Part shown: piece by piece, positions 4,834-8,850 of the stretch
Numbering within the stretch: position 1 is the stretch's first letter
How the letters are laid out: every line of letters starts with the position of its first letter
Origin: JALXCG01 sp026991065 [NCBI: Gemmatimonadota bacterium]
Lineage (GTDB): Bacteria; GCA-2686955
Direction of reading: 5' to 3'
Assembly (NCBI GenBank): GCA_026991065.1
Contig: JALXCG010000889.1
Coordinates: forward strand, 1-9,614
DNA length: 9,614 nucleotides
The notes under the pieces: generated by a model
What the model was told of the DNA's origin: nothing
Databases searched by the model: none
Seen by the model: only the letters and a program-made list of their open reading frames with translations
Made by a program: the position numbers and the translations under genes

Positions 4834-5733
4834 TCATCCGCGGGTGCCTGGATCGATTCCGCGCTCCATCAATAGCGCCCGGAGCCGGGCCTCTTCCTCC
4901 TCGGCTCGTAGCGCCCGAGCCTTCTCCTTCTCGGCCCGAGCCGTCTCCTTCTCGGCCCGAGCCTTCTCCTTCTCGGCCCGAGCCTTTTCCTTCTCAGCCC
5001 GAGCCTTCTCCTTCTCGGCCCGAGCCGTCACCTCTCGCAGCTCACGCTCCCGCTGGCGGTGCAGCCGCAGTGCATCCAATCGGGACATATACTGCATGTG
5101 GTTGAGCTGCTTTTCGGAGAACTCTCTCAAAACTGCCATGGCGCGTCTCATCTCCGGCGTTTCGATCTCGGGCGGCAAGGCGTTCCATTCCCGTGCCTCC
5201 TTAAAAAAGTATAGCCAACGATCCCGCCCATCAAGAGTGCCGTGACCGCGGTGCCACTTGGCCAGTTCGAGAATGTGCAACGCGATGTGCTCACTGAGAG
5301 TAACCCGGTGCTCCGGGTCGTGGAGAAGGAACTGGTGGTGGCAGGCCGGGGATTGCGTCAAGAGGTTGTTGCGCAAGACCCAGATGCAGACCACGGGGCG
5401 CAAGCGATCGTAGTCATCTCCGGAGACCAGTTGCTCGTGGTAGAGACTGCTCCAGTTGTACAGCATCCGCGCGGGCAGTGAGGGGCGGCGCTCCAACTGG
5501 ATCTCGACCTGGTAGACCACGCCGCGTTCGTCGGTCGCTTTTACATCCACAATGGTCAGCTTGTCACCCTCGAACTCGCGTTCGTTGTAGGGGTTGAGAA
5601 TCTGCACTTGGGCGATCGGCGGGGTCGGCCGCAGAACCCCGTTGAGGAAGTCCAGCAGCAGGTCCGAGTGCCGGGGCGAGCCCAGCAATGCCTTGAAAAC
5701 ACAATCAACTGTCGGATCGATGCGATGTTTCAT
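4834..5733 (-). CDS. Rpn-family / PD-(D/E)XK nuclease transposase-like protein with coiled-coil repeat tail
   Basis: This 299-residue protein belongs to the Rpn family (recombination-promoting nuclease, RpnA-E of E. coli; also annotated PD-(D/E)XK nuclease family transposase). Members are DNA endonucleases, some linked to RecA-independent recombination or phage defence. The N-terminus MKHRIDPTVDCVFKALLGS is the family's usual opening. Asp63 in IVDVKA and Glu77-x-Gln79 in YQVEIQ match the D...ExQ catalytic core. LYNWSSLYHEQL and the central helical part also fit. Residues 237-271 are five heptads ARAEKEK (one ends in T), then an acidic/Leu helix ending LRALLMERGID. The start ATG at 5733 is chosen for the family opening; the frame stays open upstream, but the extra 91 residues look non-coding. 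The Shine-Dalgarno is weak (GGACC). It lies 345 bases after the AKR gene, so it is probably transcribed separately. No inverted repeats or partner genes suggest an active transposon. Confidence 0.9.
   Translation of the reverse strand: MKHRIDPTVDCVFKALLGSPRHSDLLLDFLNGVLRPTPPIAQVQILNPYNEREFEGDKLTIVDVKATDERGVVYQVEIQLERRPSLPARMLYNWSSLYHEQLVSGDDYDRLRPVVCIWVLRNNLLTQSPACHHQFLLHDPEHRVTLSEHIALHILELAKWHRGHGTLDGRDRWLYFFKEAREWNALPPEIETPEMRRAMAVLREFSEKQLNHMQYMSRLDALRLHRQRERELREVTARAEKEKARAEKEKARAEKEKARAEKETARAEKEKARALRAEEEEARLRALLMERGIDPGTRG
4921..5025. repeat. Five 21-bp tandem repeats inside the Rpn-family gene
   Basis: Five back-to-back copies of a 21-bp unit reading CTTCTCCTTCTCGGCCCGAG+C on the plus strand run from 4921 to 5025 and differ at only a few positions: CGTCTCC at 4942, and CTTTTCC with TCAGCC at 4984-5004. 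Each copy encodes one heptad ARAEKEK on the minus strand, so copy-number change would stay in frame and shift the coiled-coil length by one heptad. Such near-identity suggests recent expansion by slippage or unequal recombination. Confidence 0.95.
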
Positions 5734-6078
5734 TCGGGGTCCGTTTGATGCTTCGGAGCCACCCTTCTTGCGGATGGCGGGCAGCCGGCCCAGTCTGCGC
5801 GGCGGGACCATCCAGCCACGGTTGCCGGGGTGAATGCCCGGAACCATCGCAAGAGCGGGACCAGAAGAGGCGCGACATGGGAAACCCTCGGCGCAATGCT
5901 GCGGATTCCCGGAACGCCTCTTGCTAGACGGATGCCAGGCGGGAACGGACCGGCGATGGGCGCATCTTAGTGCGCCGCGGGGAGGCAGTCCCGCAGCCAA
6001 TGACACAGTTGGGGTCTTGATGGTGGTCGACGTATCTCCGGTCCCCAGGCGCCCTTCATGAGCGCCTGGAAGCAGCGC
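5734..6078. other. Intergenic region between AKR and Rpn-family genes
   Basis: No gene is supported in these 345 bases. Besides the stem-loop at 6045-6069 they hold two weaker hairpins. GGCGCA (5959-5964) / TGCGCC (5971-5976) has a 6-nt loop. GTTGCCGGG near 5821 pairs with CCCGGAAC ending at 5844, with one bulged base. A promoter for the Rpn-family gene should lie here on the minus strand, but no -35/-10 pair with acceptable spacing was found. The open frame continuing the Rpn-family reading upstream has an Arg/Pro/Gly-rich translation and no family likeness. Confidence 0.5.
6045..6069 (-). terminator. Stem-loop just after the AKR gene
   Basis: CCAGGCGC (6045-6052) and GCGCCTGG (6062-6069) form a perfect 8-bp stem with a 9-nt loop. 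It begins 9 bases after the AKR stop codon on the minus strand. The position suggests the end of the SDR-AKR transcript or a 3' stabilising structure. There is no T-run, so Rho-independent termination of the classical kind is not shown. Confidence 0.45.
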
Positions 6079-6948
6079 TTACGGCACATAGGGCAGCCGC
6101 TTGCGCGCCTTGACCGCGCGGCCGTAGGCGCGGACCCAAGCATCCTCCTCGGGAGAGAGCGGACCGGCGTCGAGAGCGGCGAGGTTTTCGCGCAGTTGAG
6201 CTGTGTTGGCCGGGCCGGAAAGCACCACCTGAACCTGTGGACTGGAGAGGCAGAAGCGGTAGCAGAGCGGCGCGGTGAGCGGCGGTGCTCCGGCGAAGGC
6301 GGGCGTGGCCGGGGGAGGCGGCAGTTCGCTCGCGCCCTTGAGCGGTCGCAGCAGTTGCCGCCAGGAGGTAGCGGTATAAGCGACAATCGCCGGGCGGCGC
6401 TGCTGCAGGTGGGGAAAGATATCCTGCTCGGCGCCGGGGTGCTTGGCGTTGTAGCGAATCATCAGCAGATCGAGAATCGAATCGGCCGCCAGCCGCCCCG
6501 CCCGCCGCCGATCATGGATGCTGCAGCCGAGTGCCCGCACCAGACCACGCTCGCGCAGTTCCACCATCGCCTCCTGCATCGCCGGCGTGAAGAAGGAGCC
6601 GCGCCCCAGCCAGGAGACCTGGTAGATGTCGAGATGGTCGGTGCCCAGCAAGCGCAACGCCTTCTCCACGCCGCGCCGCACCATGCCGGCACTGTAGGCG
6701 GTGCCCAGCATGGCGACCACATGCTGCTCCCGCTCCGCGCGCAGGAGCGGCGCCAGTGCCGCGGTCATCTTCTTCATCCGCGGCGTCCAGACCCAGTAGC
6801 GCACCCCCAGCTCCGCCGCCAGGCGAATGCCGGCCGTGTCCAGGCCGTAGTTGCCGGCGACGCCCAAGCGCGGGACGCGCTTCTTCACGCAGGTCAGGTC
6901 TGTGTAGCGAAACGAATCGGCGGGTGCAGAGAGTGTCGGCGAATCCAT
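6079..6948 (-). CDS. Aldo/keto-reductase-fold protein lacking the usual catalytic tetrad
   Basis: This 289-residue protein keeps the outline of the AKR (TIM-barrel) family: RLGVAGNYGL near the first strand, LRLLGTDHLDIYQV (98-111), ELRERGLVRALGCSIHD (130-146), RYNAKHPGAEQDIFPHL (165-181), and a C-terminal cofactor-binding-like stretch VQVVLSGPANTAQLRENL (239-256). By eye the tetrad Asp-Tyr-Lys-His appears lost. The usual GINFFDTA segment reads GVRYWVWT (Val53 for Asp), no Tyr follows where YG is expected, the Lys strand reads VVAMLG (about Met80), and the usual YQxH reads YQVS (Ser112). I recall bacterial AKR-annotated proteins with a similar YW variant, so this may be a stable subgroup and not decay. 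The start ATG at 6948 has GGGAG 5 bases upstream; an open upstream frame of 29 codons has no such signal. It lies 93 bases after the SDR gene on the same strand, probably co-transcribed. The reaction is unknown. Confidence 0.85.
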   Translation of the reverse strand: MDSPTLSAPADSFRYTDLTCVKKRVPRLGVAGNYGLDTAGIRLAAELGVRYWVWTPRMKKMTAALAPLLRAEREQHVVAMLGTAYSAGMVRRGVEKALRLLGTDHLDIYQVSWLGRGSFFTPAMQEAMVELRERGLVRALGCSIHDRRRAGRLAADSILDLLMIRYNAKHPGAEQDIFPHLQQRRPAIVAYTATSWRQLLRPLKGASELPPPPATPAFAGAPPLTAPLCYRFCLSSPQVQVVLSGPANTAQLRENLAALDAGPLSPEEDAWVRAYGRAVKARKRLPYVP

Positions 6949-7041
6949 GAAGTCTCCCGCGAGGAGGGCGAAGGGTGGAGAACGGAGCGGCACGGCACCG
7001 CCTGATCCGGAAGCGTGACGGAATCGCGCCGGCAATCCGGG

Positions 7042-7962
7042 TCAACCGGTGGCGGCCGGCAACGCATGGTGTACGCCGGTCAACTCTTCCGAGATCCGCC
7101 ACAGTCGGCGCGCGGCGTCTTCATCCCGGGCCGCGGCGCTGGAACTCGCGGGGCCGGGATAACCGCGGACCTCGAACCACCCCTTGGGACCGTAGTAGCC
7201 GCCGGGAACCACCTCGGGGGCGGTCGCGGCGTAAAGGGTGGGCAACGCGCCCTGCCAGGGCGGCATCGCCATGAAAGGATTGAGGAGTTCGAAGAGCCGG
7301 ACGTGACGCTGGAGATCGGTGTGGGTCCAGCCGGGATGAGCGGCCACGGCCAGTGTGCCGCTTCCGGCCGCTGCCAACCGGCGTTGCAGCTCGGCGGTGA
7401 AGAGCAGGTTGGCCAACTTGCTCTGGCCGTAGGAGCGTTTCTTGTCGTAGCGACGCGATTGCCACTGCAGATCGTCGAACTCCAGGCTGCCCAACCGGTG
7501 GGCCATGCTGGCAACCGTGACCACCCGGGACCCGGGGGTCTTCAGCAACGGTTTCAGCAGCAGACCGGTGAGGGCGAAATGGCCCAGGTGGTTGGTGCCG
7601 AACTGAAGCTCGAAACCGTCCGCGGTCCGGGAGAGCGGCGGCATCATCACACCGGCGTTGTTGATCAGCAGGTCGAGACGGTCGAAGCGGTGCAGAAACT
7701 GATCGGCAAAGGCGCGCACCGCGGCCAGCGCCGCGAGGTCGAGCAGCATCAACTCGACCGTCGCCGATGGGTGCTTGCGATGGATCGCCGCGACCGCTTG
7801 TTCGCCCTTGACCCGATCGCGACAAGCCACGATCACTGTCGCGCCCTTTGCGGCCAGCGCGCGGGCGGTTTCGAACCCGATTCCGCTGTTGGCGCCGGTC
7901 ACCAGCGCGACTCTTCCCCGCTGCTCCCCCATCTGTTCCGTCGTCCAGGCTTTGTTCTGCAT
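7042..7962 (-). CDS. Short-chain dehydrogenase/reductase (SDR), retinol-dehydrogenase/WWOX-like
   Basis: This 306-residue NAD(P)-dependent oxidoreductase is cytoplasmic and acts on an unknown alcohol or carbonyl substrate. The classical SDR signature is intact: TGANSGIG (22-29) for the cofactor, LLDL (73-76), NNAG (101-104), catalytic Asn124, Ser152 in TVASMAH, and Tyr178/Lys182 in YGQSK. Arg48 in ACRDR after the second strand favours NADP(H). The C-terminal part (HPGWTHTDLQ, GYYGPKGWFEVRG) resembles the retinol dehydrogenase/WW-domain oxidoreductase branch. The start ATG at 7962 is fixed by the Shine-Dalgarno GGAGGAG (7972-7966), the best in the window. The gene is the first of a two-gene unit with the AKR-like protein and is divergent from the TetR gene. 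Its promoter (8098-8070) contains a probable TetR operator, so repression lifted by a small molecule is likely. Confidence 0.95.
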   Translation of the reverse strand: MQNKAWTTEQMGEQRGRVALVTGANSGIGFETARALAAKGATVIVACRDRVKGEQAVAAIHRKHPSATVELMLLDLAALAAVRAFADQFLHRFDRLDLLINNAGVMMPPLSRTADGFELQFGTNHLGHFALTGLLLKPLLKTPGSRVVTVASMAHRLGSLEFDDLQWQSRRYDKKRSYGQSKLANLLFTAELQRRLAAAGSGTLAVAAHPGWTHTDLQRHVRLFELLNPFMAMPPWQGALPTLYAATAPEVVPGGYYGPKGWFEVRGYPGPASSSAAARDEDAARRLWRISEELTGVHHALPAATG

Positions 7963-8050: not shown

Positions 8051-8064
8051 TCAGTGACCACTGA
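8051..8064. promoter_or_regulatory. Third palindrome near the SDR transcription start
   Basis: TCAGTG (8051-8056) and CACTGA (8059-8064) flank a central AC. The palindrome falls about where the SDR transcript should begin, 6 bases past the -10 box. It overlaps GACC half-sites at 8056-8059 and 8063-8066 but does not match the GACCnnnGGTC pattern. It may be an extra binding site or a 5'-end hairpin. Confidence 0.3.
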
Positions 8065-8069
8065 CCAAC

Positions 8070-8098
8070 TGTATAGGAGACCGCTGGTCGGTTGTCAA
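8070..8098 (-). promoter_or_regulatory. Sigma-70-type promoter of the SDR-AKR unit
   Basis: Read on the minus strand, a perfect TTGACA (8098-8093) is followed by exactly 17 bases (8092-8076) and TATACA (8075-8070). The transcript should start near 8063, leaving a leader of about 100 bases before the SDR ATG. The spacer holds the palindrome at 8078-8090, so a bound repressor would block RNA polymerase. Confidence 0.75.
8078..8090. promoter_or_regulatory. Probable TetR operator 1 (SDR promoter spacer)
   Basis: AGACCGCTGGTCG contains the perfect inverted arms GACC (8079-8082) and GGTC (8086-8089) around GCT. It sits inside the 17-bp spacer of the minus-strand promoter. Its centre (8084) is 22 bp, about two helical turns, from operator 2. 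Inverted repeats of this size next to a divergent tetR-type gene are usual targets of that repressor. Confidence 0.65.
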
Positions 8099-8120
8099 GA
8101 GACCAATGGTCTGCTATTTT
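8092..8120 (+). promoter_or_regulatory. Sigma-70-type promoter of the TetR gene
   Basis: TTGTCA (8092-8097), a 17-bp spacer (8098-8114) and TATTTT (8115-8120) form a good promoter reading toward the TetR gene. Its -35 shares bases with the -35 of the opposite promoter. TATTAT at 8124-8129 is an alternative -10 with poorer spacing. The expected leader is about 80 bases. Confidence 0.65.
8100..8112. promoter_or_regulatory. Probable TetR operator 2 (TetR promoter spacer)
   Basis: AGACCA (8100-8105) and TGGTCT (8107-8112) form a perfect palindrome around A8106. It occupies the same place in the plus-strand promoter that operator 1 has in the opposite promoter, which implies autorepression. It is the stronger of the two sites, with 6-bp against 4-bp perfect arms. 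Confidence 0.68.
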
Positions 8121-8205
8121 CTGTATTATATTCTCACCACTTAGATTGCAACTACGATCGACCAAGTCCAGATAAGAGACCATCAGTCACAACGCGACGA
8201 ATAAG

Positions 8206-8850
8206 ATGACCTGGAAACGAGCACGCAGTCCCGAGCAAAAGGAGGAGCGGCGCAGGGCGATCCTGGCCGCGGCCGCCGCCCTCTACGAGAGCCGGGGCCT
8301 GGAGGGCGCCGGGCTCAACGCCATCGCGCGCCGCGCCTGCCTCTCCAAGGCCAATATCTACCGCTATTTCGAGAGCCGGGAAGAGATCTTTTTGCACCTC
8401 ACGCTGGAGGAATATCGCGCCTGGATCGGCGAAATCGAACAGGCTTTGGCCCCGCTGGCGGGCCGGGATGACGAATGCGCGCTGGCGGCAACGCTGGCGG
8501 CGAGTTTGGCCGCCCGCCCGCGCCTCTGCGGCCTCTCCGCGTCGATCTCGGTGGTGCTGGAGACCAATGTCTCGGTCGAGGTGGTGGTCTGGTTCAAGAC
8601 CCGGCTGCTGGAGCTGATGTTGCGCCTGAGCAACGCGATCCGGGTCGCCATGCCGGCGCTGGATGGTGACGGCACGCAGCACTTCTTGCGCCTCGCCCAC
8701 CTGCTGGTGACCGGGTTGTGGCCGGCGGCGCAGCCACCGCCGGCGGTGCGGGAGGCGCTGCGGCGGCCGGAGTTGCAGTATGCCCGCGTCGACTTCGAGA
8801 GGGACCTCAGGGAGTCGCTGGTGGTTGTGCTGCGCGGCCTGATGGGCTGA
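8206..8850 (+). CDS. TetR/AcrR-family transcriptional regulator
   Basis: This 214-residue DNA-binding repressor has an N-terminal helix-turn-helix: RAILAAAAALYESRGLEGAG (17-36), then LNAIARRACLSKANIYRYFESREEIF (37-62), with the characteristic IYRYFxSREE recognition end. The remaining part (about 63-214) is helical and should form the dimer and ligand pocket; it includes VVLETNVSVEVVVWFKTRLLELM (about 121-143). The ligand is unknown. It is divergent from the SDR-AKR unit, and two matching palindromes lie in the shared promoter, so it very probably regulates both directions. The ATG at 8206 gives the standard TetR N-terminus but has almost no Shine-Dalgarno (AATAAG), which fits low-level repressor synthesis. 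No truncation is seen. Confidence 0.95.
   Translation: MTWKRARSPEQKEERRRAILAAAAALYESRGLEGAGLNAIARRACLSKANIYRYFESREEIFLHLTLEEYRAWIGEIEQALAPLAGRDDECALAATLAASLAARPRLCGLSASISVVLETNVSVEVVVWFKTRLLELMLRLSNAIRVAMPALDGDGTQHFLRLAHLLVTGLWPAAQPPPAVREALRRPELQYARVDFERDLRESLVVVLRGLMG

What the first reader, a model, noticed from the sequence alone, without database searches (positions are those of the whole stretch)
8070..8120. Mirror-symmetric two-way promoter with one operator in each spacer
Two promoters point outward with overlapping -35 boxes (TTGACA on minus, TTGTCA on plus) and identical 17-bp spacers. Each spacer holds one GACCnnnGGTC palindrome (centres 8084 and 8106), and the whole element is symmetric about roughly 8095. 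One repressor species could silence both directions, and the 22-bp centre spacing puts both dimers on the same DNA face. Divergent TetR control is well known; the exact symmetry and compactness (51 bp) are unusual.
Basis: partly seen in the sequence, partly recalled or inferred. Interest (0 to 1): 0.6.

Follow-up and report, generated by a model that had tools for sequence, protein, structure and literature searches.

The report
TetR operator array around divergent promoter
A bacterial repressor gene and its neighbouring enzyme gene are separated by a row of evenly spaced repressor-binding sites that fit into the gaps of the promoter; the row is conserved in many bacteria, but the exact mirror image seen here is a rare local version of it.

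Summary
GACCGCTGGTC (8079-8089) and GACCAATGGTC (8101-8111) lie 22 bp apart. Each is centred in a 17-bp spacer, and the -35 boxes overlap in TTGTCAA (8092-8098). It is the most inverted-symmetric 51-mer of the window (34 of 51), and its exact pair occurs once in the held genome.

Comparison with 93 related loci supports TetR control but changes the picture. Arrays of GACCnnnGGTC at 22-23 bp recur, with promoter hexamers in the linkers. The conserved unit is the leftward promoter (-35, 3 nt, operator, 3 nt, -10-like hexamer) plus a second operator 22-23 bp further on the SDR side (22 of 27 loci of this layout). Here that partner is the degenerate 8056-8066.

Many close relatives have a separate TetR-proximal operator (9 of 15 at 43% identity or more); here that is 8178-8188. 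So the leftward promoter is well supported, while the rightward TTGTCA/TATTTT promoter is uncertain: its -35 is a by-product of TTGACAA, and promoter counts are at chance. Binding, repression and start sites are inferred.

The parts
6079..6948 (-). aldo/keto reductase gene downstream of the SDR on the same strand, probably one operon (start codon uncertain)
   Evidence: PF00248 7.8e-15; ORF
7042..7962 (-). short-chain dehydrogenase/reductase (PRK06197 subfamily), putative target gene; GGAGGAGA precedes its ATG
   Evidence: PF00106 1.6e-29; NF004846 9.3e-129; sequence
8056..8066 (.). degenerate operator GACCACTGACC (2 mismatches), 23 bp from 8079, over the expected SDR transcription start
   Evidence: the SDR-side position is occupied in 22 of 27 loci of this layout (window included)
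8070..8075 (-). -10 candidate of the SDR promoter, TATACA
   Evidence: sequence; 4 of 6 matches
8079..8089 (.). operator GACCGCTGGTC centred in the SDR promoter spacer; the conserved one
8093..8098 (-). -35 of the SDR promoter, TTGACA, 3 nt from the operator
8092..8097 (+). -35 candidate of a rightward promoter, TTGTCA (overlaps the minus -35)
   Evidence: not above chance by itself
8101..8111 (.). operator GACCAATGGTC centred in the rightward spacer; extra, rarely shared
   Evidence: counterpart in 2 of 26 other loci
8115..8120 (+). -10 candidate TATTTT of the rightward promoter
8171..8176 (+). GATAAG, a -10 candidate of a TetR-proximal promoter, next to operator 8178
   Evidence: sequence; ATAAGAGA also runs into the proximal operator of L069, L073 and L097
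8178..8188 (.). TetR-proximal operator GACCATCAGTC (1 mismatch), starting 28 bp before the TetR ATG
8206..8850 (+). TetR-family regulator with TetR_C_34 C-terminal domain
   Evidence: PF17929 8.3e-35, PF00440 1.3e-12; PDB 2zcx 6.7e-27

Best explanation
The element is an in-phase operator array of the TetR_C_34 repressor encoded at 8206-8850. One dimer per GACCnnnGGTC binds at 8079 and 8101, more weakly at 8056 and perhaps at 8178. The 22-23 bp operator period nearly equals the 23-bp step from the start of a -35 to the start of a -10. Operators therefore fall in promoter spacers and the hexamers fall in the 11-12 bp linkers. A dimer at 8079 sits in the spacer of the leftward SDR promoter (TTGACA-17-TATACA) and blocks RNA polymerase. 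Dimers at 8101 and 8056, on nearly the same DNA face, could stabilise it. A ligand, probably a substrate of the SDR and aldo/keto reductase, would release the repressor. Site 8101 also covers any rightward promoter in TTGTCAA, and 8178 would cover a TetR-proximal promoter, so the regulator represses itself. Shown: motif, spacing, their conservation and the -35 placement. Inferred: binding, cooperativity, repression, ligand, transcription starts.
For: 55 of 94 loci (window included) have an exact site within 220 bp upstream of the TetR match (shuffle mean 0.6), and 62 of 94 have at least two sites with at most 1 mismatch (0.84); spacings 22 (26 pairs) and 23 (19 pairs) dominate. In 73 non-redundant loci, 22 (20 pairs) and 23 (15 pairs) still lead, and 14 have chains of three or more operators (up to 2 mismatches) at 21-23 bp (0.1 in mononucleotide shuffles). 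72 of the 73 regulators were scanned and 72 of 72 match TetR_C_34. In the 26 divergent-SDR loci TTGACA (5 or 6 of 6) on the SDR strand lies exactly 3 nt from the operator at 18 of 50 sites, and at 0 of 50 for every other offset from 0 to 8. 22 of 27 loci with a leftward -35 so placed have a further operator 21-24 bp on the SDR side (1.2 expected). Similar arrays with a rightward TTGAC -35 in the linker precede TetR genes of the G029 group without a detected divergent SDR, which ties the motif to the regulator rather than to the SDR.
Against: No binding or expression data. -10 hexamers are only weakly enriched at the matching offset. 46 of 73 non-redundant loci lack the leftward -35/operator layout, and 17 of 73 show no site by the criterion; 8 of those 17 are regulators under 36% identity. 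Spacing is not universal: 35 bp in L003, 32 bp in L004, 30 and 17 bp in L081-L083 and L085, 29 bp in L063. The SDR-TetR start-to-start gap is 243 bp, above the 200-bp rule of PMC3511530. Same-face binding at 22-23 bp (2.1-2.2 turns) is geometry, not data. Co-occurrence cannot exclude another regulator that travels with these genes.
Confidence: 0.78

Rival explanations
1. One reading: a true two-way promoter, with tetR transcribed from TTGTCA-17-TATTTT (8092-8120) and operator 8101 as its dedicated site, so the 51-bp mirror element controls both directions symmetrically.
For: Operator 8101 is exact and sits in the centre of the 17-bp spacer. Two other loci have an operator 22 bp on the TetR side of the SDR-spacer operator (L069 with 2 mismatches, L126 with 1). 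In three Bacteriovorax-type loci a -35-like TTGTCA (L011, L013) or CTGTCA (L012) is followed after 18 nt by TATTC[AT] in the same direction (read by eye), though without an operator in that spacer.
Against: Only 2 of 26 other loci have the TetR-side operator, 0.5 expected by chance. TTGTCA is the unavoidable reverse reading of TTGACAA. The promoter scan is at chance. Many close relatives have a TetR-proximal operator instead, some with a better promoter.
Confidence: 0.4
2. tetR is transcribed from a proximal promoter just before its start (-10 GATAAG 8171-8176, operator 8178-8188). Site 8101 then acts only as an upstream helper of the SDR repression complex.
For: Of the 15 other loci at 43% identity or more, 9 have an operator (at most 2 mismatches) starting 22-28 bp before the TetR match start; the other 10-bp bins of the last 80 bp hold 0 to 2 (L014, a fragment without sites, was not in that count and is counted here as lacking it). 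L001 has TTGACA-17-TATATA and L097 TTGACG-18-TATAAG right before it.
Against: In the window the -35 for GATAAG is poor (TTGCAA at 19 nt by eye) and one search lists no promoter there. 6 of the 15 lack the proximal site. Distance to the start codon differs: in L069, L070, L073 and L074 the operator ends about 2 bp before an ATG, in the window 17 bp.
Confidence: 0.5
3. The palindromes serve a different regulator, or are chance in GC-rich DNA.
For: GACCnnnGGTC with one mismatch is at chance in the window, AGACCnnnGGTC is at control level in the held genome, and the pair with 2 mismatches allowed is at control level too.
Against: The exact pair is unique in the held genome, and the motif tracks TetR_C_34 genes across loci titled Deltaproteobacteria, Acidobacteria, Planctomycetota, Bacteriovoracaceae and Variovorax.
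Confidence: 0.05

Closest known systems
tetR/tetA control region with tetO1 and tetO2 (passages of PMC3037858, PMC3511530 and PMC9736018 seen)
   Same: Divergent genes, two palindromic operators overlapping the promoters of both genes, one TetR-type dimer per operator; PMC9736018 states an 11-bp separation of the two 15-bp operators
   Different: Target is an SDR, not an efflux pump; different operator sequence; centres 22 bp apart; each operator centred in a promoter spacer; arrays of up to five operator-like sites in relatives (L078)
PA3973 of Pseudomonas aeruginosa (PMC9736018, abstract passage and further passages seen)
   Same: TetR-type regulator with two closely spaced palindromes (14 bp, separated by 11 bp) around the predicted -10 of its own promoter
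   Different: Motif SAAGRNMTGAACG, not GACCnnnGGTC; its named target genes are PA3972-PA3971 (acyl-CoA dehydrogenase, thioesterase)
2zcx, TetR-family regulator (PDB)
   Same: Full-length homologue (6.7e-27 over residues 3-212)
   Different: No paper with this code in the held library; its operator was not examined here. That it is SCO7815 is recalled, from no call; the one paper found for SCO7815 (PMC3737563, passages) only mentions the gene as annotated TetR-family

Membership tests
TetR family, TetR_C_34 subgroup | TetR_N helix-turn-helix plus PF17929 domain | tested here: met
   PF00440 1.3e-12, PF17929 8.3e-35, both over cut-off; 72 of 72 scanned regulators of the comparison set match both
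TetR-type divergent repressor/target control | Regulator divergent to its target with a short gap | tested here: met
   SDR on minus, TetR on plus, 243 bp between start codons; longer than the 200 bp of PMC3511530
TetR-type divergent repressor/target control | Palindromic operators overlapping the target promoter | tested here: met
   8079 in the SDR spacer; arrangement conserved
TetR-type divergent repressor/target control | Dimer binds operators and a ligand releases it | not testable with these tools
   needs binding assays
Mirror-symmetric two-way promoter | Both promoters active, one operator each | tested here: inconclusive
   leftward promoter conserved; rightward -35 a by-product, TetR-side operator in 3 of 27 loci with the window

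The most novel reading that the evidence does not exclude
TetR_C_34 regulators use a modular operator ruler: operator units repeat with a 22-23 bp period matched to the -35/-10 distance, so promoter hexamers sit in the linkers. Adding or losing one unit moves repression from one-way to two-way control, and this window records such an expansion, with a new TetR-side operator and a decaying SDR-side one.
Probability: 0.4. Interest if true: 0.55.

Novelty: new variant of a known kind. Interest (0 to 1): 0.4.

Why it matters
It gives a TetR subgroup a specific testable operator, GACCnnnGGTC, and a layout rule linking operator period to promoter spacing, and it predicts an SDR and aldo/keto reductase target operon. 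Searches of the held open-access library for this domain name, for the 2zcx code and for this operator layout listed no paper whose listing describes it; one search showed only 10 of 134 papers, and most subscription journals are not held. The window suggests how one added operator could turn a one-way switch into a near-symmetric two-way one.

Tried and rejected
Promoter consensus scan: no signal above chance. AGACCnnnGGTC over the held genome: at control level, so the single motif does not reveal a regulon. The pair in the held genome: exact only at this locus; the 2-mismatch place on C45 (L128) was not pursued, since the control gives as many places. Recognition-helix comparison: four loci with many GAAC half-sites (L068, L070, L073, L074) share AKSNVYRYF, but that helix also occurs with GACC operators (L088, L094), so no simple code. 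Plasmid search: 7 records, 6 fetched; the three Streptomyces loci fetched (L050, L052, L054) show a same-strand layout and no array, one isolated exact site in L052 apart. The same-family genome G001 has only a weak TetR hit (1.3e-5), so nothing could be compared inside the family.

Selection. Loci came from capped hit lists (at most 30 loci per genome search), so they are not a census. At, 124 loci (two copies of the window left out) plus the window were examined and 94 kept; 16 with TetR bits under 60, 3 without a hit and the remaining 12, with an identical last 120 bp upstream, fell away (counts). A similarity filter on the last 160 bp upstream gave 73. A divergent SDR could be seen only within the fetched flanks and by weak matches too (tblastn E up to 1e-3), so 26 of 73 is approximate. 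Of the 27 loci, 20 have a detected divergent SDR and 7 do not; one of the 27 (L098, TGGACA at an operator 22 bp from the match start) is doubtful. The list of 29 relatives was chosen by hand and left out L014 (49%), a fragment without sites; it was also left out of the scan.

Full report
What is there. The window is a whole 9614-bp contig of a 902-contig, 4.14-Mb draft genome. An SDR oxidoreductase gene (7042-7962, minus; NCBIfam PRK06197 subfamily) faces away from a TetR-family gene (8206-8850, plus) with a TetR_C_34 domain (PF17929 8.3e-35). An aldo/keto reductase gene (PF00248) follows the SDR on the same strand. The start codons are 243 bp apart.

Two exact GACCnnnGGTC palindromes, centres 8084 and 8106, flank TTGTCAA (8092-8098), and each fills the middle of a 17-bp spacer as 3+11+3. 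The 51-mer at 8070 is the most inverted-symmetric one of the window (34 of 51). Two exact copies in the window are somewhat unlikely by chance (8 of 200 shuffles). The exact pair is unique in the held genome, though with two mismatches allowed the pair is no commoner than its control. Two more sites are not in the finding: GACCACTGACC at 8056-8066 (2 mismatches) and GACCATCAGTC at 8178-8188 (1 mismatch).

Comparison. Relatives of the TetR protein came from a genome scan (16 loci), plasmid records (7 hits, 6 fetched) and whole-genome searches. After filtering, 94 loci with the window were analysed. An exact site lies within 220 bp upstream in 55 of 94 (shuffle mean 0.6), and at least two sites with at most one mismatch in 62 of 94 (0.84). 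The commonest spacings are 22 and 23 bp (26 and 19 pairs), and 44 bp, twice 22, is third (12 pairs). After removing similar upstream regions, 73 remain: 22 bp 20 pairs, 23 bp 15 pairs, and 14 of 73 with three or more operator-like sites in step (0.1 in mononucleotide shuffles); L078 has five. All 72 regulators of these 73 that were scanned match TetR_C_34 and TetR_N (L014, a fragment, was left out). The operator and its period are therefore not chance, and they accompany this regulator.

Where the promoter sits. In the 26 divergent-SDR loci, TTGACA with at least 5 of 6 matches lies on the SDR strand exactly 3 nt from the operator at 18 of 50 sites, and at none of the other offsets 0 to 8. This is the strongest evidence for the leftward promoter. 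-10 matches are weaker and not sharply placed. In the 47 other loci the rightward strand shows the same offset at 11 of 62 sites (one site each at offsets 4 and 8) and the leftward strand at 5 of 62 (two at offset 2). In the G029 group the order is operator, TTGAC(G/A), operator.

Which pair is conserved. 27 of 73 loci have a leftward -35 three nt from an operator with at most two mismatches; 20 of these have a detected divergent SDR. Of the 27, 22 have another operator 21-24 bp on the SDR side (1.2 expected) and only 3, the window included, on the TetR side (0.5 expected). The window's 8079 is thus the conserved core, its conserved partner is the degenerate 8056, and 8101 is an uncommon addition shared in position with L069 (2 mismatches) and L126 (1 mismatch). 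L001, the closest relative (57% identity), lacks a TetR-side site.

The tetR promoter. Of the 15 other loci at 43% identity or more, 9 have an operator 22-28 bp before the TetR match start. L001 and L097 have good promoters just upstream of it, and L069, L073 and L097 read ATAAGAGA into it. The window has AGATAAGAGACCATCAGTC there. The distance to the start codon varies: the operator ends about 2 bp before an ATG in L069, L070, L073 and L074, and 17 bp before it in the window. The rightward TTGTCA/TATTTT promoter may still work, but TTGTCA is the other strand of TTGACAA and the match count is at chance.

Mechanism. The likeliest reading is repression by occupation: a dimer in the SDR promoter spacer excludes RNA polymerase, and in-step neighbours about two helical turns away may add cooperativity. 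The period of 22-23 bp close to the 23-bp -35/-10 step explains why operators and hexamers interleave. Ligand, cooperativity and transcription starts are inferences. Exceptions are L003 (35 bp) and L004 (32 bp), about one helical turn longer, and L081-L083, L085 (30 and 17 bp) and L063 (29 bp), which do not fit the step.

Known relatives. TetR regulators with paired operators at divergent promoters are well known: PMC3511530 (passages) describes two 15-bp palindromic operators repressing tetR and tetA and a 200-bp rule of thumb, and PMC9736018 (passages) gives an 11-bp separation for tet operators and for the PA3973 sites. The mechanism is therefore known in kind. The searches made listed no paper whose listing describes a GACCnnnGGTC array of TetR_C_34 regulators; one of them showed 10 of 134.

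Verdict. Observation confirmed; TetR control supported; strict mirror-symmetric two-way promoter only partly supported and not conserved.

Noticed in passing
L018, L101-L111, L113, L116, L123 (upstream of the TetR gene): In this group the last operator, GAC[TC]CATGGTC, seems to contain the TetR start codon (ATG GTC AGC). CATGGTCAGC occurs near the presumed start in 17 of 94 loci, 15 of them with the GAC[TC] arm.
   Followed up: partly
L078 (about 209 to 111 bases upstream of the TetR match start): Five operator-like sites (0 to 2 mismatches) in tandem at 21-23 bp steps, the last followed by the SDR -35; L071 has three.
   Followed up: partly
L005-L010, L015, L055 (Variovorax, Mitsuaria, Rhizobacter, Paraburkholderia by the titles of those): Operators 23 bp apart with AT-rich -10-like sequence between them instead of -35 boxes, so the two promoters may overlap through their -10 regions.
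   Followed up: no
window 6079-7962: SDR and aldo/keto reductase adjacent on one strand; a Streptomyces plasmid locus with a related TetR also lists aldo/keto reductase and SDR genes, hinting at carbonyl metabolism.
   Followed up: no
window 4834-5742: PDDEXK_2 transposase-family protein (PF12784) with a repeated RAEKEKA tail in its C-terminal part.
   Followed up: no
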